Shown here: piece after piece, positions 2-10,956 of the stretch
Layout of the letters: every line of letters starts with the position of its first letter
Position numbering within the stretch: position 1 is the first letter of the stretch
From: Schwartzia sp. (in: firmicutes)
GTDB taxonomy: Bacteria > Bacillota > Negativicutes > Selenomonadales > Selenomonadaceae
NCBI GenBank assembly: GCA_024691625.1
Contig: JAILNL010000110.1
Location: 1 to 10,998 of the forward strand
Length of the DNA: 10,998 bases
Direction: 5' to 3'
The notes under the pieces: model-generated
The model's input: the letters and a program-made list of their open reading frames with translations, nothing else
Database searches by the model: none
What the model was told of the DNA's origin: nothing
Position numbers and translations under genes: made by a program

Positions 2-1327
2 CGTCAGCTCATGAAACGCGGCCTCACAATCAAAGAGGCTGCAGGACAGATTTTCTTCGGTATTTCCATGGGCGCGAACTTCTTCATGCAGATTGCGAAA
101 CTGCGTGCATCCCGTCCAATCTGGGCAAATATCATCAAAGCCTTCGGCGGCGACGAAGAAGATATGGCTATGCATGTACACGGCCGTCCGGCGCTCTTCT
201 TCAAGACCGTACTCGACCCGTATGTTAACATGCTCCGCAACACGACAGAGATTTTCTCCGGCGTTGTAGGCGGTCTTGATTCCTACGAGAACGAACCGTT
301 CGATGAGCCTATCCGCAAAGGTGATGTATTCTCCCGCCGTATTGCCCGCAACGTGCAGGTAATGCTTCAGGAAGAATTCGGACTTCTCCAGCCGATTGAC
401 CCCTCCGGCGGTTCATGGGCTGTTGAGACCCTCACAAAGCAGATTAAAGAAAAAATCTGGGCAGAGTTCCAGGCTATCGAAGCAAAAGGCGGTATTGTAA
501 AGGCTCTGGAGGAAGGCTATCCTCAGGAGATAATCGCAAAGACGCTGGCAGACCGCTTCAAGGCTCTGGAGTTCCGCAAAGACCGTATCGTCGGCAGCAA
601 CATGTATCCGAATATGGCAGAGGAGCTTCTTGACAAGCGTGAAGAGGACCATGCAGCACTCAAGAAACAGCGTCAGGCGGATATCGATGCATATCTCTCT
701 GATATGGACGAGACGCATAAAGCAGAAAGCCTCAAGGCTCTCAAAGAAGCAGCTACCCTCGACGCAGCTCTCAAAGCATTCCAGGCAGGTGCTACAATCG
801 GCGAAATCCGCGCAGCTCTCAACAAAGGGGGCGCTTCCGAGACGCTGAAGGCAATCGAGCCGCACCGCTGGAGCGAGCGCTTTGAAGACCTCCGTATGAC
901 TACGGAAGCTTACAAGAAAGCTCATAACGGAGACAACGTCAAGGTATTCCTTGCCAACATGGGACCAATCCCGCAGCATAAGGCTCGTGCGGATTTCTCC
1001 ACCAGCTTCCTGCAGGTCGGTGAATTCGATGTTGAGCTCAACAACGGCTTCAAGACAACGGACGAGGCAGCAGCTGCTGCAAAAGAATCCGGTGCTGATG
1101 TCGCTGTCATCTGCTCGACGGATAAAACATATCCGGAAATCGTTCCGGATCTCGCACCGAAACTCCGTGCAGCTCTGCCGAAAGCAACGATTTACCTGGC
1201 AGGCGCAGCTCCGAAAGACCTTGAACCGGTCTATCGCGAAGCAGGCGTTGATGACTTCATTTCCGTCAAAGCCAACTGCTATGAAATTCTGCGGTTCCTG
1301 CAGAAGAAGAAAGGGATGATTAATTGA
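2..1327 (+). CDS. mutA: Methylmalonyl-CoA mutase small (beta) subunit, 5'-truncated by window edge
   Basis: Open from base 2, so the true start lies upstream; 441 residues are visible of a protein usually about 620 long. It is the non-catalytic partner of MutB in the AdoCbl-dependent mutase that interconverts succinyl-CoA and (R)-methylmalonyl-CoA in the cytoplasm. The visible part has the end of the TIM-barrel domain ([15 protein letters not shown], then [14 protein letters not shown] and [10 protein letters not shown]), a helical linker, and a C-terminal cobalamin-domain-like fold beginning near [11 protein letters not shown]. Where MutB has DxHxxG, this chain reads [11 protein letters not shown], so the lower-ligand His signature is absent, as expected for the small subunit, which does not bind B12. 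The stop overlaps the mutB ATG by one base (TGATG), suggesting translational coupling. The internal ATG at 11 is not the start, because conserved sequence runs through it. The family call is certain; the promoter and any cobalamin riboswitch would be outside the window. Confidence 0.96.
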
Positions 1328-3525
1328 TGGCATTGAATCCTGATTTTACTAAACTGGAACTGGAGACGGCACCGGCTCAAAATGAAGCAGAGTGGAAAAA
1401 ACGCCTCCAGGAGGAAACGCATAAAAACTACGATGACATCGTCAATACGACGATGGAGCATGTCAAAGTGCGTTCCTTTTATAACCATGACGAATACGAC
1501 CACATGACGCATCTGGACTTTGCCAGCGGCATCCCTCCATGCCTGCGCGGACCTTACTCCACGATGTATGTCTTCCGTCCATGGACGGTTCGTCAGTACG
1601 CAGGTTTCTCCACGGCAGAAGAATCCAACGCATTCTACCGCAGAAACCTCGCAGCAGGTCAGAAAGGTCTTTCCATCGCATTCGACCTTCCGACTCACCG
1701 CGGCTACGATGCCGATAACCCGCTCGTCTTCGGCGATGTCGGTAAAGCCGGCGTTTCCGTTTGCTCCATGCTTGATATGAACATCCTGTTCTCGGGAATC
1801 CCTCTCGACCAGATGTCCGTATCCATGACAATGAACGGCGCCGTTCTTCCGATTCTCTCCTTCTTCATCCAGTCGGGTGTTGAGCAGGGCGTCGACAAGG
1901 CTATCATGGCAGGTACGATTCAGAACGATATCCTGAAGGAATTCATGGTTCGTAACACGTACATCTACCCACCTGATATGTCCATGCGTATCATCGGTGA
2001 TATTTTCGAATACACCACAAAATACATGCCGAAATTCAACAGCATCTCCATTTCCGGCTATCATATGCAGGAAGCAGGTGCTCCGGCAGATATTGAGCTG
2101 GGCTACACGCTGGCTGACGGTCTTGAATATATCCGCACGGGTATTAAAGCAGGCCTCCCGGTCGATGCCTTCGCAAAGCGTCTGTCCTTCTTCTGGGCTA
2201 TCGGCAAAAACTACTTCATGGAGATTGCAAAGATGCGCGCTGCCCGCGTGCTCTGGGCAAAAATCGTCAAATCCTTCGGTGCGACGAACGACAAATCCAT
2301 GGCACTCCGTACGCACAGCCAGACATCCGGCTGGTCTCTTACAGCACAGGATCCGTTCAACAACGTATCCCGTACGGCAATGGAAGCTATGGGTGCAGCT
2401 CTCGGACATACACAGTCCCTGCACACCAACGCATTGGACGAAGCTATCGCTCTTCCGACAGACTTCTCCGCACGTATTGCCCGCAATACGCAGCTCTATA
2501 TCCAGGACGAGACGAGCGTCTGCAAAATCATCGACCCGTGGGGCGGTTCCTACTATGTCGAAGCTCTCACGAACGAAATTATTCGCCGTGCATGGGCTCA
2601 CATTCAGGAGGTCGAATCCCTCGGCGGTATGGCAAAAGCTATCCCGACAGGTCTTCCGAAGATGCGTATCGAGGAAGCTGCTGCACGCCGTCAGGCACGT
2701 ATCGACTCCAACAACGAGTCTATTGTCGGCCTGAACCGTTATCGTCTGGACAAAGAGGATCCGTTGGAAATCCTCGCAATCGACAATACGGCCGTCCGCA
2801 ACGCTCAGGTTGCACGCCTCGAAAAGCTGCGTGCTGAACGTAACGAAGACGATGTACGCAACGCTCTTGAAGCAATCACGAAAGCAGCAGAAAGCCGCGA
2901 AAACGGCAACCTGCTGGAGTGTGCTGTCGAGGCTGCACGCGTACGCTGCTCCCTCGGTGAGATTTCCGATGCTGTCGAGAAAGTCTCCGGACGTTATCAG
3001 GCTGTCATCCATACGATTTCCGGCGTTTACTCCTCGGAGTTCACGGACAAAACAGCTCTGGACAAAGCACGTGCACTTGCTGATGAATTCGAAAACATCA
3101 GCGGACGCCGCCCGCGTATCTTCGTAGCAAAGATGGGCCAGGACGGTCACGACCGCGGCCAAAAGGTTATCGCTTCCTCCTTCGCGGATATGGGCTGGGA
3201 CGTCGACGTAGGACCGCTCTTCCAGACACCGGAGGAAACAGCGCAGGATGCTGTTGATAACGACGTTCACATGGTTGGCTTCAGCTCGCTGGCAGCCGGC
3301 CACAACACACTCCTTCCGGAGCTTGTTCAGGAACTCAAGAAACGCGGCCGCGACGACATCATGGTTGCCATCGGCGGCGTCATCCCGGTTCAGGATTACG
3401 ACCACCTCTACGAAGGCGGTGCTGTCGCTATCTTCGCACCGGGCACGAACATCCCTGAAGCAGGCATTAAGCTTCTGAATCTGCTCATCGAAAGAGCAAA
3501 GGCAGAAGCAGCAGACAACGGCTGA
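1327..3525 (+). CDS. mutB: Methylmalonyl-CoA mutase large (alpha, catalytic) subunit
   Basis: 732 residues, full length for the family. It is the B12-binding catalytic subunit that converts succinyl-CoA to (R)-methylmalonyl-CoA, which feeds decarboxylation to propionate in fermenting Negativicutes. The N-terminal region (about 1-45) contacts MutA. The TIM barrel carries [17 protein letters not shown] (residues 79-95), [10 protein letters not shown] (207-216) and [12 protein letters not shown] (241-252). Tyr91, Arg209 and His246 correspond to the Propionibacterium catalytic Tyr89, Arg207 and His244. The C-terminal cobalamin domain has the DxHxxG motif (DGHDRG, Asp606 and His608) and a GFSSLAAGH loop. 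ATG 1327 overlaps the mutA stop; an in-frame TTG at 1324 is an alternative start adding one residue. An AAGGG-type ribosome site lies about 12 nt upstream in mutA. Codon use is strongly biased (CGT, GCT/GCA, CTC), as in highly expressed genes. meaB follows after 10 nt. Confidence 0.98.
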
Positions 3526-3535
3526 GAGGCACATT

Positions 3536-4726
3536 ATGGCAGAGTACACGACTTCTAAACCGGAATGGGCACCGGACAAAGACGATGAAAACAAATTCGC
3601 CTGCGGTGTGATGAGCGGAATCGACGGCATCACCGACACAACTGTCGGCAACCTGAATCCGGCACTGAAAAACGGAACAATGAAGCCGAAACGCAAGATG
3701 GTCCTGAGCGTAGACGACTATGTCAAGGGCGTCAGCGCAGGCGACCGCGTCACTCTCGCCCGGGCCATCACGTTGATTGAAAGCAATAACCCAAAGCATT
3801 TCAGAAAAGCACAGGAGGTTCTTCAGGGCCTTTTGCCAAGGACAGGAAAAGCTCTGCGCATCGGTATCACCGGTGTTCCCGGAGCCGGAAAAAGTACGAC
3901 CATCGAGGCCTTCGGCAATATGCTCTGTGATATGGGACATCGTGTAGCGGTTCTCGCGGTAGACCCGACAAGCTCGGTAACCCGCGGTTCCATTCTCGGT
4001 GATAAAACCCGTATGGGAACTCTTTCACGGCGCCAAGAGGCATTCATCCGTCCTTCACCGGCAGGTGGAACCCTCGGAGGTGTCGCACGCAAAAGCCGCG
4101 AAACAATGCTTCTCTGCGAGGCTGCAGGTTATGATATCATCCTTGTGGAAACAGTCGGCGTCGGCCAGTCTGAAACGACCGTCCGCTCCATGGTAGACTT
4201 CTTTATGCTCATTGTTCTGACAGGTGCAGGTGACGAATTGCAGGGCATCAAAAAAGGAATCATGGAACTTGCGGATGCAATCGTTGTCAACAAAGCAGAC
4301 GGCGACAATCTCCTCAAGGCAAAGGTTGCGCGCGCCGAATACGAGCGCATGATAGAATTCATAAGACCCGCTACAGAAGGCTGGAGAACCCACGCCTATC
4401 TGGCGTCCGCCTACAAGAAAACAGGACTGAAGGAATTGTGGGACGTCATACGTGCCTTTGACAAGGTCACGCACGATTCCGGAGTGTTCAAACGCAGACG
4501 CGACAGCCAGCTTTTGGACTGGGTGCACAGCATGATTGACGAGCATTTGCACAACCTCTTCTTCGACGATCCGGTGGTGCTTGGACGAATGCCCGAAATC
4601 AAAGACGCGGTTCTCAGAGGAATTATATCACCGACACAGGCAGTGGCAGAGCTCATTCACATCTTTGATGTGCAGAGAGCCACCCAGCGCCATGTCGACC
4701 TTTTCCACCCGGATAATCAGAAATAA
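3536..4726 (+). CDS. meaB: MeaB/ArgK-family GTPase, methylmalonyl-CoA mutase chaperone
   Basis: 396 residues. A G3E-type P-loop GTPase that gates AdoCbl delivery to the mutase and protects or reactivates it. Visible motifs are Walker A GVPGAGKST (113-121), AVDPTSS (141-147), the switch region ETVGVGQSE (205-213) and the guanine-specificity motif NKAD (252-255), followed by a helical C-terminal dimerisation region. The ribosome site GAGAGG overlaps the mutB stop 7 nt before the ATG, so the gene is coupled to mutB. Compared with stand-alone bacterial MeaB (about 330 residues), this one has roughly 55 extra N-terminal residues (acidic/Lys-rich with one Cys) before the usual MeaB start region VDDYVKGVSAGDR. 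Starting later at Met49 or Met55 is possible but would lack the good ribosome site. Neighbours settle the function as the mutase chaperone rather than the once-proposed arginine/ornithine transport kinase. Confidence 0.96.
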   Translation: MAEYTTSKPEWAPDKDDENKFACGVMSGIDGITDTTVGNLNPALKNGTMKPKRKMVLSVDDYVKGVSAGDRVTLARAITLIESNNPKHFRKAQEVLQGLLPRTGKALRIGITGVPGAGKSTTIEAFGNMLCDMGHRVAVLAVDPTSSVTRGSILGDKTRMGTLSRRQEAFIRPSPAGGTLGGVARKSRETMLLCEAAGYDIILVETVGVGQSETTVRSMVDFFMLIVLTGAGDELQGIKKGIMELADAIVVNKADGDNLLKAKVARAEYERMIEFIRPATEGWRTHAYLASAYKKTGLKELWDVIRAFDKVTHDSGVFKRRRDSQLLDWVHSMIDEHLHNLFFDDPVVLGRMPEIKDAVLRGIISPTQAVAELIHIFDVQRATQRHVDLFHPDNQK

Positions 4727-4741
4727 AGGAGGAAGCCACCT

Positions 4742-5311
4742 TTGTACACGAAGAAAATATACTTCGCCGGAGGCAGCTTTCACGAGCTTCAGGAAGTGTT
4801 TTCAAGAATTGAGGGTGTCAGCGGGGTAACCGCGGGCTACATCAACTCCGACATACAAGCTCCTACATACGATGAAGTGATGACAGGCAGCTCAGGTGCT
4901 GCCATGGGAGTAGAGGTTCTGTTCGACCCCAAACGTATAGACCTCTCATCTCTAATGGATATCCTGTTTGCCGTAATCAATCCGTATGTAAAGGATAAGC
5001 AGGGAGACTGCGAAGGGCCTATGTACCGAAGCGGCGTTTACTACACATCGGCAGAGGATGAACCTATGGTGGAGTATCACATGAACTTCATCAGAAATCG
5101 GAAAAAAATCCCGGCCGTGACAGGTTCGCAGCTCACACTGAATGACCCCAACAGCGACCCTGAGGGGATACGCCAATGCTACGCTGAGGCTATGAGGCTT
5201 CAAAACTTCACCCCCGCGGAGGATGAGCATCAGCATTATCTCAAAAACCATCCCGAAACAAATACAAATATCGATTTCGCGTTACTGAAGAAACTGAATA
5301 TAATTCGGTGA
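4742..5311 (+). CDS. MsrA-fold protein lacking the catalytic cysteine (probable pseudoenzyme)
   Basis: 189 residues from a TTG start, with AGGAGG at 4727-4732 and a 9-nt gap. The chain aligns end to end with peptide methionine (S)-sulfoxide reductase MsrA: FAGG (8-11), GV..VTAGY (25-33), APTYDEV (40-46), VEVLFDP (57-63), QG..EG..YRS (87-97) and AEDEHQHYL (159-167). The residues that do MsrA chemistry are changed. The GCFW motif reads GSFH (Ser12 for the nucleophilic Cys, His14 for Trp), the Glu of the GHAEAV motif is Met55, and the Asp of the GNDxGTQYRS motif is Cys90. Tyr33 and Tyr95 remain. The frame is intact with a strong ribosome site, so this is not simple decay. It is the last gene of the mut operon, where the methylmalonyl-CoA epimerase gene often sits. 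Sulfoxide reduction is unlikely; the actual role is unknown, possibly binding of methionine, CoA or the mutase (inference). Confidence 0.85.
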   Translation: MYTKKIYFAGGSFHELQEVFSRIEGVSGVTAGYINSDIQAPTYDEVMTGSSGAAMGVEVLFDPKRIDLSSLMDILFAVINPYVKDKQGDCEGPMYRSGVYYTSAEDEPMVEYHMNFIRNRKKIPAVTGSQLTLNDPNSDPEGIRQCYAEAMRLQNFTPAEDEHQHYLKNHPETNTNIDFALLKKLNIIR

Positions 5312-5421: not shown

Positions 5422-5453
5422 TTGAACGAAGGCGTTATAATCCGGTAAAACAG

Positions 5454-5492
5454 CACGGAGCCCCGCCGAAAGGCAGGTGCTCCGTGTTTTTT
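5454..5492 (+). terminator. Rho-independent terminator of the mut operon
   Basis: CACGGAGC (5454-5461) pairs with GCTCCGTG (5479-5486). Inside, CC/GG and GCC-GAAA-GGC pairs give a nearly continuous stem with a GAAA tetraloop. Six T follow directly (5487-5492). It is the only strong terminator after the MsrA-like gene. Confidence 0.92.
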
Positions 5493-5522
5493 ATTCCTTC
5501 CTTCACACGATAGATGTATAAC

Positions 5523-5589: not shown

Positions 5590-6195
5590 ATGAAATGCGA
5601 CTGCGCGAACTGTCCCACACACGCCTGCTACACCAAGGGTGTAAACTGTACCGGAGCCGATATCGAAGAGGTTAAGGCTCTATACACTGAAGAAGAACGG
5701 AAAATAATGGAAGCTGCAGCATACGTGGAAGGTACCTTCTACAGCAACATCACACGCCTTGAGGAAACAGCAGAATTTGCAAAGGCGATGGGGTACAAGA
5801 CCCTCGGCATGGCATTCTGTATCGGACTTAACTCCGAAGCAAAGACCATTGCGCGCTATTATACGAAGCAGGGCTTCAAATTTTACAGCGTATGCTGTAA
5901 GAACTGCAGCGTACCAAAAAAAGACCTTGGCTTAAAGCAGGTCAAACCTGAGCTTGACCACGAAGCCATGTGCAATCCCAAAATGCAGGCAAAATTCCTT
6001 GAGGAAAACGGGGTAGAGCTTTATATATCCTGCGGACTTTGCGTGGGGCACGACACGATTTTCAACATGAACTGCCCGGGTCCTGTCACAACACTCGTTG
6101 CAAAGGACAGAGTCCTTGCCCATAATCCTCTTGGAGCAGTCTATTCACGCTATTGGAAACGCAAGCTGGGTATCCTCGGTGACGGCGAGGTCTAA
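5590..6195 (+). CDS. Cys-rich DUF1847-family putative metal-binding protein
   Basis: 201 residues, with ATG behind GGAGGG (5578-5583). No signal peptide or membrane segment is visible, so it is probably cytoplasmic. Thirteen Cys are clustered. The N-terminus has CDCANC (3-8), then Cys13 and Cys20. Cys77 sits in MAFCIGLNSEA. The middle has VCCKNC (101-106) and Cys128, and the C-terminal part has SCGLCVGHD (147-155) and NCPGP (161-165). This pattern and the CANCPTHACY opening match, from memory, the DUF1847 family of uncharacterised anaerobe proteins. The spacing suggests zinc or iron-sulfur binding, but no ligand set can be assigned from sequence. It is monocistronic, with its own promoter candidate and a terminator right after it (6219-6257). 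The function is unknown; I find no link to its neighbours beyond position. Confidence 0.85.
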   Translation: MKCDCANCPTHACYTKGVNCTGADIEEVKALYTEEERKIMEAAAYVEGTFYSNITRLEETAEFAKAMGYKTLGMAFCIGLNSEAKTIARYYTKQGFKFYSVCCKNCSVPKKDLGLKQVKPELDHEAMCNPKMQAKFLEENGVELYISCGLCVGHDTIFNMNCPGPVTTLVAKDRVLAHNPLGAVYSRYWKRKLGILGDGEV

Positions 6196-6282: not shown

Positions 6283-7644
6283 ATGGCCCGCAATTTTACT
6301 ACAGGCAGCATCAGCAGAGCTGTTCTCGTCTTTTCCATACCATATCTGCTCACATATTTCCTGCAGATGTTCTACGGCATGGCAGACCTTTTCATCGTAG
6401 GTCAGTACAACGGCGTTGATGAGATTACCGCCGTAGCCGTCGGCAGTCAGATAATGCACATGGTCACAGTCATGCTTGTAGGCCTCGCCATGGGTACAAC
6501 AGTCTGTATAGCCCGTGCAGTCGGCGCAGCAGATAAAAAACGCATAGCAAAGGCAGTAGGGGGCACGGCAGCACTTTTTTTCGCTGTGTCTATTCTGGCT
6601 ACCGTCCTCACTCTGATTTTCCTGGACTCCATAGTGTCTGTAATGGCAACCCCTGCGGACGCGGTTCCCGGTACAACGTCATATCTTCGCATATGCTTCC
6701 TTGGAATTCCTTTTATAACAGCTTATAACGTCATCAGCGCCATGTTTCGCGGCCTTGGAGATACCCAAAGCCCTCTTTTGTTTGTTGCGGCTGCCTGCGT
6801 TCTGAATATATCTCTTGATTATGCCTTTATCGGAGGCATGGGCCTGGGCGCTGAAGGCGCAGCATATGCTACCATTCTCGCGCAGGCGGCAAGTGTCCTG
6901 ATATCTATCGTTTATATCCGTCTCAAAGACACAGGAATATCACTTAATACAGCATACCTGCGGCCTGATTCTTCCGTTCTTCGTGAGCTTCTGCGCGTAG
7001 GAGCCCCCATTTGCGTACAGGATGCCTTTATTCAGATTACGTTCCTTATTCTCACGATTATAGCAAACAGCAGGGGACTTGAACAGGCAGCGGCCGTTGG
7101 AATCGTCGAAAAGCTTCTTGGCTTTTTCTTCCTTGTTCCTTCCTCAATGCTCTCCGCAGTTTCCGCTCTTGCCGCTCAGAATCTCGGAGCAGGAAAACCG
7201 GAAAGAGCTCTCGGCACTCTCCGCTATGCCCTGAGTATCACTGTCATCTATGGTCTCTCCCTCGGTATACTAATGCAGTTCTTTGATGCTGCGGTGCTGG
7301 CACAGTTCACCACAGATGCTGCGGTCATAGCCATGGGCTGCCAGTACATGGGCGCGTACATTTGGGATGTGGCGATTGCAGGGGTGCATTTCTGCTACAG
7401 TGGTTATTTCTGCGCCTACGGCATCTCCATTGCAGCATTCATACATAACGCCGTTTCAAGCGTCGCAATACGCGTATCGGGAGCTTATCTTGCTGCCATT
7501 ATGTGGCCGGATACACTTATGCCGATGGGTGCCGCAGCGCCACTGGGTTCGATTCTTTCAATCATCATATGCCTTCTTATAGCCAACTGGATGAAAAAAC
7601 ATCCCGAAAAGATGACCGGCATTGTCAAAGTAAAGGAGAATTAA
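6283..7644 (+). CDS. MATE-family multidrug efflux transporter
   Basis: 453 residues, the usual MATE length, with about 12 hydrophobic segments along the whole chain. It is an inner-membrane exporter that expels cationic drugs or other organic compounds in exchange for Na+ or H+. Family features are the opening SISRAVLVFSIPYLLTYFLQ and YGMADLFIVGQY in TM1, VGLAMGTTVCIARAVGA in the TM2-3 region, NVISAMFRGLGDTQSPL near residue 148, and the second-half repeat (VGIVEKLLGFFFLVPSSML then AAQNLGAGKPERA). It resembles the NorM/MepA-like branch; the substrate cannot be read from sequence. ATG 6283 has GGAGAGG 9 nt upstream. The peptide deformylase gene begins 2 nt after its stop, so the two are cotranscribed. 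Transcription probably starts within the upstream hairpin or by read-through. Confidence 0.94.
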   Translation: MARNFTTGSISRAVLVFSIPYLLTYFLQMFYGMADLFIVGQYNGVDEITAVAVGSQIMHMVTVMLVGLAMGTTVCIARAVGAADKKRIAKAVGGTAALFFAVSILATVLTLIFLDSIVSVMATPADAVPGTTSYLRICFLGIPFITAYNVISAMFRGLGDTQSPLLFVAAACVLNISLDYAFIGGMGLGAEGAAYATILAQAASVLISIVYIRLKDTGISLNTAYLRPDSSVLRELLRVGAPICVQDAFIQITFLILTIIANSRGLEQAAAVGIVEKLLGFFFLVPSSMLSAVSALAAQNLGAGKPERALGTLRYALSITVIYGLSLGILMQFFDAAVLAQFTTDAAVIAMGCQYMGAYIWDVAIAGVHFCYSGYFCAYGISIAAFIHNAVSSVAIRVSGAYLAAIMWPDTLMPMGAAAPLGSILSIIICLLIANWMKKHPEKMTGIVKVKEN

Positions 7645-7646
7645 CA

Positions 7647-8060
7647 TTGGTAAAAGATATCATACACGAAGAAGCCTTCCTAAAACAGCCATCCATCGCT
7701 GCAGAAAAAGCTGATATCCCCATTGCTCAGGATTTATTGGATACTCTTGCGGCGCATAAAGAAAAATGCGTTGGAATGGCAGCCAATATGATTGGTGTAC
7801 TCAAAAATATTATTGTTATCAATACAGGTACAGAGGCAATAGCAATGCTCAATCCTGAGATCACAAAGACCTCCGCAAAACGCTACAAGACTGAAGAAGG
7901 CTGCCTTTCTCTCACAGGAGAGCGCGAAACAGAGCGTTTTGAAAGCATTGAAGTAAAATACCGTGATATGAATTGGAACAAGCAGAAGCAAAAATTCTCG
8001 GGCTTCACTGCTCAGATTATCCAGCATGAAATAGACCACTGCAGGGGAATTCTGATTTGA
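7647..8060 (+). CDS. def: Peptide deformylase, short Gln-to-Met motif-I variant
   Basis: 137 residues from TTG 7647, with AAAGGAG (7632-7638) 8 nt upstream inside the MATE 3' end. A metalloenzyme that removes the formyl group from N-terminal formyl-Met of new proteins. Motif I reads VGMAANMIG (42-50) with Met48 where the classical GLAAPQ motif has Gln. Motif II EEGCLS (83-88) supplies Cys86, and motif III HEIDH (127-131) supplies two metal His and the catalytic Glu. The metal site is therefore complete. The protein lacks any C-terminal extension, ending six residues after motif III. Small GMAANMIG-type deformylases are, from memory, known in Clostridia and relatives, so activity is plausible despite the changed oxyanion residue. 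It is likely a second deformylase, because essential def copies usually sit beside fmt or priA. Terminator 8071-8110 follows. Confidence 0.9.
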   Translation: MVKDIIHEEAFLKQPSIAAEKADIPIAQDLLDTLAAHKEKCVGMAANMIGVLKNIIVINTGTEAIAMLNPEITKTSAKRYKTEEGCLSLTGERETERFESIEVKYRDMNWNKQKQKFSGFTAQIIQHEIDHCRGILI

Positions 8061-8971: not shown

Positions 8972-9687
8972 GTACCCTGTACCTTCTTTTCAAGGAATCC
9001 CCGTCCCAAAACAAGACTCCCCAGAATCAGAATCATCGTAGGCAGCATAAAAGAATCCGGGCCAAATACGCGAAGGCATATTATCGCAGACAGTATCCCG
9101 ATTCCGGCTGTATAATGCTGTTTTTCGTGCATCCACTGCTCAAGAAAAATAACAACAAACATAGCGGTCATGACAAAATCAAGACCCTTTGTATCGAATG
9201 GCAGGAACCCACCGAAAAGCCCACCCAAGGTCGCCCCCGCAACCCAATAGCACTGGTTCAAAAACGTCACCCATAACATAAACCAACCGCGATCTATTCC
9301 CTGCGGAATTTTCGCCGTATAATTTATAGAAAAGGTTTCATCGCAAAGCCCGTAAATCAAGTACCACCGTTTCCATCCAAGCCCTTTGAATCGATATAGC
9401 ATAGCTATTCCGTAAAAAAGATGACGAGCCTGTATCATAAGCGCCAAAAGGAATACAGCTATAGGGGCAAAAGGTGAAAGGAGCATTGAGACAGCAACGA
9501 ATTCCAACGATCCTCCGAAAATAACCGCTGACATAATCATGGGATATACAAATGAGAATCCGTACGCATTCATATATACTCCATATGCCATTCCCAAAAA
9601 CAAAAATCCGGCAAGAATCGGCAACGTATACGGAACCGCGGCCTTTAATGCCGCTATCCTTGTATCATATGTATTTTTATTATGCAT
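8968..9687 (-). CDS. azlC: AzlC-like branched-chain amino acid export permease
   Basis: 239 residues, normal for AzlC/BrnF, with several hydrophobic segments. Recognisable parts are ILAGFLFLGMAYGVYMNAYG (about 19-38), the conserved IFGGSLEFVAVSMLL, QARHLFYGIAMLYRF, and YGLCDETFSI, which matches the family's LTDETFA-type motif. It is the large subunit of the AzlCD inner-membrane exporter for leucine, isoleucine, valine and analogues. Its ATG shares one base with the rep stop (TAATG), with AAGGAAG as ribosome site 5 nt upstream inside rep, so synthesis is probably coupled to that of the replication initiator. This arrangement is unusual, since azlCD more often sits with an Lrp- or AraC-type regulator. 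No such regulator is in the window. Confidence 0.94.
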   Translation of the reverse strand: MHNKNTYDTRIAALKAAVPYTLPILAGFLFLGMAYGVYMNAYGFSFVYPMIMSAVIFGGSLEFVAVSMLLSPFAPIAVFLLALMIQARHLFYGIAMLYRFKGLGWKRWYLIYGLCDETFSINYTAKIPQGIDRGWFMLWVTFLNQCYWVAGATLGGLFGGFLPFDTKGLDFVMTAMFVVIFLEQWMHEKQHYTAGIGILSAIICLRVFGPDSFMLPTMILILGSLVLGRGFLEKKVQGT

Positions 9688-10688
9688 TACGCTTCCTTAT
9701 TTTTCTCCTTAAAAAGGTTATCCATGTGAGGAGAATGATATCCCTGCTCTTCAAGAGCTCGCTTAAGACTGCCATCCGACGGAGCATGGTAGACCGGCTC
9801 CGGGCGATATACCTGTGTTTCCTCGGTCTTTCTTTTCGAAACCGAATGCTTCACATAAGTATAATCCTTCTCTGACGCATCGTATGTTCTCGTATCGTCA
9901 GTCATATCCTCCGGTACCGCAGAAATATCCATCTTTATCAAGAAGGCAACGATTCGTCTTCCCTCTTTGATGGATTCATAACTCATAACATAATTCGTCT
10001 TCCTATTGATTTCACGAATAGGTCCGTCCAGTACACGGCTACGGAAATGGGCAATCCTGTCATAGGCTCCTTCAGGAACATCAAGCACATTGCGAAGCTC
10101 CTCAACAGAAAATTTTCGTTCTATGATTCCCGTCCCGTTTTTGCGGGCAAAACCCCTATACTGGATTAAAAGCTCAACAAGGCGCCATGCATACGAAGAA
10201 CTCAACGGGAAAATCTGTTTCATCGTGATGCGCGTATAGCCATACTCCTTGTCCAAAAGCTGCAGGAGATACGGCTTCATATCATCACCGAATTTCATAA
10301 TCAGTCCCTCGTCTCCGATATAACGGAAAGACTGAAAGATAACAGACTCACCGCCCTTATCCTTAGGATTTTTGGGATTCTGAGGCGGAAGCTTTACCGT
10401 GTGGGAAAGCATTTTCTTTGCGATGGTCGGGACAACATTAAGATACTTATCATTGCCGAGTGCCGCCGCAAGAGCTGCAGGTTTGATTTTAATCTGTTTG
10501 AATTCGGTCTCATTCCATGGATCTACAGCCTGCAGTGCCAATGCAAAAAGGCGCAGCTGCAAAGTATCCATGCCTTTTCTGACATTAATCAGGGGGTTTG
10601 CCTGATAAATGCTGTCACGAAAAGGAGCAAGTTGAAAGTTTCCGCTTTCTTCTTCAAAGAGGTCTTTTTCATCTTCCTTGCGTTCCAT
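9687..10688 (-). CDS. Rep_3-family (RepB-like) replication initiator of an iteron origin
   Basis: 333 residues from ATG 10686-10688, with GAGGTG 9 nt upstream. An upstream in-frame ATG at 10769 is rejected because it lies inside an iteron and before the promoter. Two winged-helix domains are expected. WH1 spans about 28-180, from YQANPLINVRKGMDTLQLRL to the Rep_3 signature FPLSSSYAWRLVELLIQY (160-177). WH2 spans about 190-252: RKFSVEELRNVLDVPEG, then HFRSRVLDGPIREINRKTNY and a GRR...FLIKM strand. A charged tail follows. Such proteins bind iterons as monomers to open the origin and bind an inverted repeat as dimers to repress their own gene, as in pSC101, F and pPS10. Both kinds of site lie directly upstream (10721-10956). 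The stop overlaps azlC. The call as replication initiator is firm; whether the replicon is a plasmid, a chromid or an integrated element is open. Confidence 0.95.
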   Translation of the reverse strand: MERKEDEKDLFEEESGNFQLAPFRDSIYQANPLINVRKGMDTLQLRLFALALQAVDPWNETEFKQIKIKPAALAAALGNDKYLNVVPTIAKKMLSHTVKLPPQNPKNPKDKGGESVIFQSFRYIGDEGLIMKFGDDMKPYLLQLLDKEYGYTRITMKQIFPLSSSYAWRLVELLIQYRGFARKNGTGIIERKFSVEELRNVLDVPEGAYDRIAHFRSRVLDGPIREINRKTNYVMSYESIKEGRRIVAFLIKMDISAVPEDMTDDTRTYDASEKDYTYVKHSVSKRKTEETQVYRPEPVYHAPSDGSLKRALEEQGYHSPHMDNLFKEKNKEA

Positions 10689-10710
10689 AATCAAATTCAC
10701 CTCAAGATGT

Positions 10711-10739
10711 AGTATATCATTAAGTGTCACACACATCAA
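10711..10739 (-). promoter_or_regulatory. Promoter of the rep-azlC-azlD operon
   Basis: On the minus strand, -35 TTGATG (10739-10734) and -10 TATACT (10716-10711) are separated by exactly 17 bp. Start near 10704 would leave only a short leader before ATG 10688. The -35 lies in the middle of the dyad at 10721-10755, so Rep bound there would exclude RNA polymerase. Confidence 0.82.
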
Positions 10740-10755
10740 CGTCATGTGACACTTA
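10721..10755. promoter_or_regulatory. Inverted-repeat operator for Rep autorepression
   Basis: TAAGTGTCACA (10721-10731) and TGTGACACTTA (10745-10755) are perfect 11-bp arms with a 13-bp spacer. The arm core TGTGACA/TGTCACA resembles the iteron half GTGACAT/GTGTCAT, the usual relation between Rep dimer operators and Rep monomer iterons. The right arm runs into the first iteron. It covers the -35 and most of the spacer of the rep promoter. Confidence 0.8.
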
Positions 10756-10956
10756 CAATTTGGTGTCATTTCGGGCTTACTTTTTGTGACATTTACACTT
10801 TGTCCTTACAATTTGGTGTCATAAAAAACGATTTTATCGGGATTCACATATCACGTCACTTACAATTTGGTGTCATTTTGAGCTTACTTTTTGGTGTTAT
10901 ATCGGCAGAAAAAAAATAAAAAATTTTTCATTTTTCCAACTTACTTTTTGTGACAT
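10752..10956. repeat. Iteron array, probable replication origin
   Basis: Six direct repeats of 17-18 bp. Type A, CTTACAATTTGGTGTCAT, is at 10752-10769, 10805-10822 and 10859-10876 (three identical copies). Type B, CTTACTTTTTGTGACAT, is at 10776-10792 and 10940-10956 (identical). A hybrid, CTTACTTTTTGGTGTTAT, is at 10883-10900. Type A copies are spaced 53-54 bp apart, and A is followed by B or the hybrid at exactly 24 bp twice. The block from 10750 recurs at 10857 over about 37 bp with two mismatches, 107 bp apart. A degenerate copy may sit at 10792-10804. Placement directly upstream of a Rep_3 gene marks it as the origin or incompatibility/copy-control region. Confidence 0.9.
10909..10936. 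other. A/T-rich stretch inside the iteron region (candidate DNA unwinding element)
   Basis: About 28 bases that are A or T except for one C, between the hybrid iteron (ends 10900) and the last iteron (starts 10940). Iteron origins typically melt at an adjacent A/T-rich segment. The 42 bases after the last iteron (10957-10998) are also A/T-rich and contain GCAA three times at 6-bp intervals (10981, 10987, 10993). No clear DnaA box was found before the window ends. Confidence 0.5.

What the first reader, a model, noticed from the sequence alone, without database searches (positions are those of the whole stretch)
4742..5311. MsrA pseudoenzyme built into the methylmalonyl-CoA mutase operon
The protein keeps MsrA landmarks along its full length, but the four pocket residues that define the chemistry are replaced: nucleophile Cys to Ser12, Trp to His14, Glu to Met55, Asp to Cys90. 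The reading frame, ribosome site and operon position are intact, pointing to selection for a new role rather than decay. It follows meaB directly, where an epimerase gene would be common. A repurposed MsrA fold attached to B12-mutase metabolism could be a mutase accessory protein, a sensor of oxidised methionine, or a CoA-ester binder or enzyme. I know of no description of such a system.
Basis: partly seen in the sequence, partly recalled or inferred. Interest (0 to 1): 0.72.

Follow-up and report, generated by a model that had tools for sequence, protein, structure and literature searches.

The report
Dead MsrA enzyme in mutase operon
Gut and rumen bacteria related to Selenomonas carry a former protein-repair enzyme that has lost its active site but is kept, usually in the same operon, with a vitamin-B12-dependent enzyme of propionate metabolism, so it has probably become a helper of that enzyme.

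Summary
ORF 4742-5311 is a full-length MsrA-fold protein without the catalytic Cys, Trp, Glu and Asp. It is the last gene of a mutA-mutB-meaB operon closed by a strong terminator. It is not a strain mutation: 0 of 62 distinct Selenomonadaceae homologues keep the Cys, and median dN/dS is 0.09. Among the 380 Negativicutes genomes searched this pseudo-MsrA (pMsrA) was found in three families. It forms one clade whose nearest relatives (four genomes of a fourth family) keep the catalytic residues and lie away from the mutase genes. It lies downstream of meaB or upstream of mutA and follows one clade of mutases (one gain and two losses suffice).

The Ser/His/Met/Cys set is not a conserved new active site (12 of 62 rows). 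Epimerase replacement is unlikely: 129 of 151 genomes have an epimerase match over the cut-off.

Best reading: a non-catalytic accessory protein of MutAB/MeaB, with weak evidence favouring MutA as partner. Association is shown; binding and function are inferred and untested. Public models call the window protein MsrA, and in 89 of 151 Selenomonadaceae genomes pMsrA is the only MsrA-family protein found.

The parts
11..1327 (+). mutA, methylmalonyl-CoA mutase small subunit; the gene begins before the window and the ATG at 11 is internal
   Evidence: PF01642 298 bits from profile position 234 on; TIGR00642 293.9 bits, partial
1324..3525 (+). mutB, methylmalonyl-CoA mutase large subunit with B12-binding domain
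   Evidence: PRK09426 model 1227.4 bits, cut-off 876; PF01642 and PF02310
3536..4726 (+). meaB, mutase-associated GTPase, with an N-terminal extension before the MeaB domain (match starts at residue 74)
   Evidence: PF03308 350 bits; PRK09435 model 480.5 bits, cut-off 329; extension aligned
4727..4734 (+). ribosome-binding site AAAGGAGG of the pMsrA gene
   Evidence: read from the sequence
4742..5311 (+). pMsrA: catalytically dead MsrA-fold protein, TTG start, 189 aa
5105..5167 (+). insertion loop of pMsrA (residues 122-142) with Asn134-Asp135, present in 62 of 62 rows, absent from canonical MsrA, predicted below pLDDT 50
5452..5493 (+). intrinsic terminator that ends the operon after pMsrA
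   Evidence: hairpin -26.8 kcal/mol, z -6.39, followed by a U run; the simple scan did not list it

Best explanation
pMsrA descends from a long form of methionine sulfoxide reductase A seen here only in Negativicutes. It lost catalysis and was recruited once into the operon of one clade of methylmalonyl-CoA mutases. It now works as a non-catalytic accessory protein of the MutAB-MeaB assembly. Shown: loss of the catalytic residues, purifying selection, a single clade, linkage to mutAB/meaB in three families with two gene orders, and its place as last gene before a terminator in the window. Inferred: it binds the mutase, more likely MutA than MeaB, perhaps through the conserved N-terminal strand and helix and the insertion loop with Asn134-Asp135; there it stabilises the MutA/MutB dimer or tunes loading or reactivation of the B12 cofactor with MeaB.
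For: No Cys in 62 of 62 rows; MsrA fold; dN/dS median 0.09 over 21 pairs. Directly after meaB in 39 of 55 named-collection loci, gap at most 2 nt in 15 of the 39. Upstream of mutA in 7 of 7 genomes of f15 and after meaB in 5 of 6 of f35. pMsrA and type I mutB: both 117, pMsrA only 5 (all below 90% complete), mutB only 9, neither 20 of 151 genomes. Mutases with pMsrA lie in one clade; Selenomonadaceae genomes with the other mutase type lack it. meaB-pMsrA stay together in G028 when mutAB lies on another contig. pMsrA distances follow MutA after control for MutB: partial r 0.63, p 0.0002, 14 loci.
Against: No binding or activity was tested. The joint MeaB-pMsrA model was uninformative: pTM 0.36, loop still below 50. 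Mutase lineages in other families do without pMsrA (12 loci of 10 families), and within the pMsrA clade of mutases it was lost twice. In most of the g13 genomes it lies away from mutAB, with varying neighbours, and G040 and G091 have in-frame stops. Linked genes are lost together by a single deletion, so co-occurrence is partly expected. The MutA covariation has no unrelated fast-evolving gene as control, and control for MutA or MeaB leaves MutB with 0.47.
Confidence: 0.5

Rival explanations
1. pMsrA is an enzyme with new chemistry: the MsrA fold acts on a CoA ester, on B12 or on a side product of the mutase, with new catalytic residues outside the old pocket.
For: Several polar residues are in 62 of 62 rows: Glu105, Asp106, Asn134, Asp135 and Tyr82. 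Position 14 is His in 45 of 62 rows. The gene sits in a metabolic operon.
Against: Nothing polar is constant in the old pocket: positions 12, 14, 55 and 90 vary within and between families. Asn134-Asp135 lie in a loop that the model does not fold. The f15 short forms of about 140 aa lack the C-terminal part. No fold search hit at E <= 0.001 suggests another enzyme family apart from one chain titled cGrx1(C16S), not examined.
Confidence: 0.2
2. pMsrA has a cell function unrelated to the mutase, and its place in the operon is inherited by descent only.
For: In most g13 genomes it lies away from mutAB next to varying genes. It is absent from several mutase-bearing lineages.
Against: It was not found without type I mutB in any genome at least 90% complete (0 of 5 exceptions reach 90%). 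Two different gene orders beside the mutase genes in three families. It follows the mutase clade even within one bacterial family.
Confidence: 0.22
3. pMsrA replaces a missing methylmalonyl-CoA epimerase.
For: It stands where an epimerase gene could be expected. No epimerase match was found in the window's own genome (63.85% complete) and in 8 other pMsrA genomes.
Against: 136 of 151 genomes match TIGR03081, 129 over the cut-off, among them the genus mate G020; the loose threshold also matches controls such as E. coli, so the 129 is the better number. In L031 and L117 an epimerase gene stands in a second mutase cluster near the first.
Confidence: 0.03
4. The gene is a decaying remnant of an msrA gene.
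For: It evolves faster than its operon partners (dN/dS 0.09 against 0.03, 0.008 and 0.046). G040 and G091 copies have in-frame stops, and loops are deleted in some lineages.
Against: Median dN/dS 0.09 (21 pairs); open frame in nearly all of the listed copies; 28 invariant columns in 62 rows.
Confidence: 0.03

Closest known systems
Peptide methionine sulfoxide reductase A (MsrA; PF01625, TIGR00401)
   Same: Homology over the length and fold; Tyr43, Tyr95 and His163 of the pocket are kept in the window.
   Different: No nucleophilic Cys, Trp, Glu or Asp of the active site and no GYC motif; an extra loop with Asn-Asp; bound to a mutase operon.
Long-form MsrA of family f28 (four Negativicutes genomes, found here)
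   Same: Nearest relatives in the tree (clade 100/94); same kind of insertion between helix and strand.
   Different: Keep Cys, Phe, Trp, Glu, Asp, Tyr and His in 4 of 4, are not beside mutAB; two of the four genomes have no type I mutase.
MeaB/MMAA G-protein chaperones of B12 mutases
   Same: Proposed role as a dedicated helper of the mutase, encoded with it.
   Different: Unrelated fold, no GTPase domain; pMsrA is an addition to MeaB, which is present too.
Prozyme, the inactive paralogue that activates S-adenosylmethionine decarboxylase in trypanosomes (PMC6221367, start of abstract seen in the listing)
   Same: A dead enzyme kept as partner of an active enzyme.
   Different: Prozyme is a paralogue of its partner; pMsrA is unrelated to the mutase, and its binding is not shown.

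Membership tests
MsrA (peptide-methionine (S)-S-oxide reductase) | Sequence homology over the domain | tested here: met
   PF01625 120.7 bits over profile positions 1-150 of 153; TIGR00401 108.6 bits, cut-off 108.1
MsrA (peptide-methionine (S)-S-oxide reductase) | MsrA fold | tested here: met
   AlphaFold pLDDT 85.3; 44 of 45 PDB chains at E <= 0.001 are titled MsrA, MsrAB, PilB MsrA domain or Mxr1
MsrA (peptide-methionine (S)-S-oxide reductase) | Catalytic Cys (or Sec) in GCFW | tested here: not met
   Ser12 (codon AGC); 0 of 62 rows Cys; 32 of 32 canonical rows Cys
MsrA (peptide-methionine (S)-S-oxide reductase) | Trp, Glu and Asp of the active site | tested here: not met
   His14, Met55, Cys90 in the window; Glu kept at position 55 in 3 of 62 family rows and 5 of 6 f35 rows
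MsrA (peptide-methionine (S)-S-oxide reductase) | Reductase activity on methionine sulfoxide | not testable with these tools
   needs purified protein
Methylmalonyl-CoA epimerase (TIGR03081) | Homology to the epimerase family | tested here: not met
   no epimerase model among Pfam or NCBIfam hits of the ORF at E <= 1
Methylmalonyl-CoA epimerase (TIGR03081) | Fills a gap left by a missing epimerase | tested here: not met
   129 of 151 genomes over the cut-off; 9 of 122 pMsrA genomes without a match
Accessory protein of a B12 mutase | Gene linkage and co-occurrence with the mutase | tested here: met
Accessory protein of a B12 mutase | Physical binding to MutA, MutB or MeaB | tested here: inconclusive
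   joint MeaB-pMsrA model uninformative; covariation with MutA only
Accessory protein of a B12 mutase | Effect on mutase activity or cofactor loading | not testable with these tools
   needs biochemistry

The most novel reading that the evidence does not exclude
A defunct repair enzyme has become an additional component of a bacterial methylmalonyl-CoA mutase: a dedicated non-catalytic factor that sits on the catalytically dead MutA subunit and controls assembly or B12 loading. I know of no such factor for any B12 mutase.
Probability: 0.35. Interest if true: 0.78.

Novelty: new variant of a known kind. Interest (0 to 1): 0.64.

Why it matters
If true, B12 mutases of Selenomonas-type rumen and gut bacteria use an extra factor besides MeaB, recruited from a repair enzyme. 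The material to test it exists in nature: a catalytic sister group (f28), mutases that never had the factor, and secondary losses. There is also a practical point. Pfam and, narrowly, NCBIfam models call the window protein MsrA, while only 35 of 151 Selenomonadaceae genomes show a canonical MsrA (178.9 bits or more; the other matches score at most 124.8). Genome-based claims of MsrA activity are therefore doubtful for many of these bacteria.

Tried and rejected
Epimerase replacement: unlikely. Strain-specific mutation or decay: rejected for the family as a whole. Recoded selenocysteine: the codon is AGC. A natural MeaB-pMsrA fusion in G012: the joint frame lies at a contig end with a duplicated stretch and looks like an assembly fault; not used. 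Long open frames before pMsrA in L048 and L049: only L048 was read, where a ribosome site and ATG stand before pMsrA and the longer frame looks like chance. MeaB N-terminal extension as docking site: its motif differs between the pMsrA clade and other Negativicutes but is unchanged in the genomes that lost pMsrA, so only a lead. Joint fold of MeaB and pMsrA: mean pLDDT 52.2, pTM 0.36; uninformative. Rfam: no match. The terminator scan did not list the terminator found by folding. Complexes with MutA or MutB could not be predicted here.

Rows dropped before counts: for A1, identical proteins, L016, L028, L029 and the seven canonical loci L057-L063. For dN/dS, only pairs with dS 0.15-1.5 and more than 150 codons (115), then disjoint pairs (21); one mutA pair with infinite dS entered its median as 0. 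For covariation, 30 of 55 loci with long enough copies of all four genes, thinned to 14. For the MutB tree, 45 of 51 chosen loci passed a length filter. The protein tree uses 25 chosen Selenomonadaceae rows and 25 canonical rows of Negativicutes, not all hits. In one search the column printed as Tyr82 is one off; one search gives the right column for the 62 family rows only.

Full report
What is there. The window is contig C198 of a 63.85% complete genome. Its genus mate G020 has the homologue on a contig of 199,291 bases, the length of the Schwartzia succinivorans DSM 10502 contig found separately, so the genus is taken as Schwartzia. The gene order is mutA (cut by the window edge), mutB, meaB, then the ORF of the finding at 4742-5311. 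It starts with TTG behind AAAGGAGG, 15 nt after the meaB stop. A hairpin with a U run follows at about 5452-5493 (-26.8 kcal/mol, z -6.39, 0 of 200 shuffles as good), before the next gene at 5590. The ORF is therefore most likely the last gene of the operon. I call it pMsrA.

The protein. PF01625 matches residues 5-173 with 120.7 bits. TIGR00401, the NCBI model that names MsrA, gives 108.6 bits against a cut-off of 108.1, so automatic annotation would name it MsrA. The AlphaFold model has pLDDT 85.3 and pTM 0.81. Of 45 PDB chains at E <= 0.001, 44 have MsrA-type titles; one is titled cGrx1(C16S) and was not examined. All 32 canonical rows and all 4 f28 rows compared keep Cys, Phe, Trp, Glu, Asp, Tyr and His at the sites numbered 51, 52, 53, 94, 129, 134 and 186 in E. 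coli MsrA (numbering recalled); the window has Ser12, Phe13, His14, Met55, Cys90, Tyr95 and His163.

Conservation. The named genome collection gave 62 loci; L002-L056 (55) belong to Selenomonadaceae or carry labels of near kin, and L057-L063 (7) are canonical GCFW proteins of other bacteria. In the alignment of 62 distinct family proteins, position 12 is Asp 30, Ser 25, Asn 7; position 14 is His 45, Tyr 7, Arg 4, Asn 4, Asp 2; position 55 is Met 39, His 6, Ser 4, Pro 4, Asp 3, Glu 3, Phe 2, Thr 1; position 90 is Cys 21, Ala 19, gap 16, Leu 6. The window's quartet occurs in 12 of 62. Tyr82, Glu105, Asp106, Asn134 and Asp135 are in 62 of 62. Asn134-Asp135 lie in an insertion that is gapped in 32 of 32 canonical rows and that the model leaves below pLDDT 50 (residues 122-142). 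A conserved but unfolded loop fits a partner-binding element; this is inference. Median dN/dS is 0.09 for 21 pairs (0.03 to 0.25), against 0.03 for meaB (17 pairs), 0.008 for mutB (8) and 0.046 for mutA (8): purifying selection, weaker than on the operon partners.

Gene neighbourhood. meaB lies directly upstream in 39 of 55 named loci, with gaps from -1 to 165 nt, at most 2 nt in 15; 35 of the 39 also show mutB. The 16 others are L028, whose start is not readable, and 15 short-form loci with varying neighbours; those I could match by place belong to genus g13. In G028 mutAB lies on one contig and meaB-pMsrA together on another. In g13, type I meaB was found in 27 of 28 genomes searched and as a fragment in the 28th, G012; G149 keeps the full order mutA-mutB-meaB-pMsrA, G078 keeps meaB beside pMsrA, while others such as G116, G135 and G147 have pMsrA away from mutAB.

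Distribution. The class search covered 380 Negativicutes genomes. Outside Selenomonadaceae (f1) I verified pMsrA in seven genomes of family f15 and six of f35; family names were not available. In f15 it lies upstream of mutA in 7 of 7; in f35 after meaB in 5 of 6, while G375 has it at the start of another contig. Other class hits were weaker; the 25 canonical-type Negativicutes proteins that I read all have GCFW, the rest were not read. Twelve type I mutase loci of 10 families or sub-families without pMsrA were read and none shows it nearby (L187-L198). In a phylum sample of 398 genomes nothing outside f1 passed E 1e-36; weaker forms would be missed there. In 151 Selenomonadaceae genomes: pMsrA with type I mutB 117, pMsrA only 5 (all below 90% complete), mutB only 9, neither 20 (recount; G040, with three in-frame TGA, is counted as present). 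Of the 9, G024, G036 and G047 carry a mutase only 73-74% identical to the window's; G067 is a fragmented genome whose contig ends within meaB, so its absence is unsure.

Evolution. In the tree of 74 proteins the pMsrA of f1, f15 and f35 form one clade (100/99) inside a long-form clade (100/94) whose other members, the four f28 proteins, keep the catalytic residues. The f28 proteins are not beside mutAB; two of the four f28 genomes have a type I mutase, without pMsrA beside it. On the MutB tree one gain and two losses of pMsrA are enough; f28 branches next to the pMsrA clade, and two Selenomonadaceae genomes with outgroup mutases (L108, L109) have none. L202, from G375, was labelled as bearing it because the genome has the gene elsewhere. 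pMsrA thus follows the mutase type rather than the bacterial family.

Partner. In 14 thinned loci, pMsrA distances follow MutA after control for MutB (partial r 0.63, permutation p 0.0002), MeaB hardly (0.15, p 0.17); MutB after control for MutA keeps 0.47. With 30 loci the first two values are 0.60 and 0.005. No unrelated fast-evolving gene was available as control, so MutA as partner is a lead, not a result. A joint fold of MeaB and pMsrA, made from their neighbouring frames with nine similar rows, was uninformative (pTM 0.36).

Function. Epimerase replacement is unlikely: TIGR03081 matches in 136 of 151 genomes, 129 over the cut-off; 9 of 122 pMsrA genomes have no match, two of them (G029, G078) at least 90% complete. 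In L031 and L117 an epimerase gene stands in a second mutase cluster near the first. A new active site in the old pocket is unlikely because its residues vary. [quoted passage not shown] pMsrA is best seen as a further non-catalytic component of that assembly; its biochemical role is not shown.

Canonical MsrA. With PF01625, 35 of 151 genomes have a match of 178.9 bits or more, and the other listed matches score at most 124.8. Two of the 35 (G024, G047) lack pMsrA, so 33 of 122 pMsrA genomes have both and 89 show pMsrA alone, incomplete genomes included.

Literature. Methylmalonyl-CoA mutase with methionine sulfoxide reductase and operon gave 4 papers, peptide methionine sulfoxide reductase with methylmalonyl-CoA gave 8, MsrA with pseudoenzyme gave none. 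I saw only the listings; none of the titles or starts of abstracts concerns such a gene. Broader searches on MeaB, Selenomonas, Negativicutes and inactive MsrA showed nothing of the kind among the rows listed. Only open-licence PMC papers are held, so absence from print is not shown.

Noticed in passing
window 9687-10769 (-): A Rep_3 replication initiator gene (Rep3_N, Rep3_C) lies a few kilobases from the mutase operon and is kept at the same place in Schwartzia succinivorans (88% identity, L002) on a 199 kb contig. A plasmid-type initiator on what looks like a chromosome or chromid.
   Followed up: partly
L031 8001-15906; L117 2039-15924: Two different mutase systems side by side in Anaerovibrio-type genomes: mutA-mutB-meaB-pMsrA, then a CoA-transferase-like gene, split mutase, second meaB, epimerase, decarboxylase-like gene and biotin carrier (names of the last genes by eye).
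   Followed up: partly
window 3536-3754 (MeaB residues 1-73): MeaB carries an N-terminal extension whose motif differs between the pMsrA clade (ACSVMxGI..., KDTT or NSVT) and other Negativicutes (ACRVMxGV..., HDG).
   Followed up: partly
G040:C72:11844-12290; G091:C47:32527-33039: pMsrA copies with in-frame stop codons in genus g13 (three TGA; one TGA and one TAA), a sign of local decay.
   Followed up: no
L036 8001-11107: In one relocated case pMsrA is followed by genes that look like cobyrinate amidase (cbiA) and cobU of B12 synthesis, judged by eye; other relocated copies have other neighbours.
   Followed up: no
window 5590-6195: A DUF1847 gene follows the operon; it was found there only in the two Schwartzia genomes (96% identity) among the loci fetched.
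   Followed up: no
window 7503-8060: The mechanical ORF of a peptide deformylase starts at a GTG inside the MATE transporter gene; the true start is probably further down.
   Followed up: no
L185, L186, L199, L200 (f15): pMsrA of f15 includes a short form of about 140 aa that lacks the C-terminal part yet still sits upstream of mutA.
   Followed up: partly
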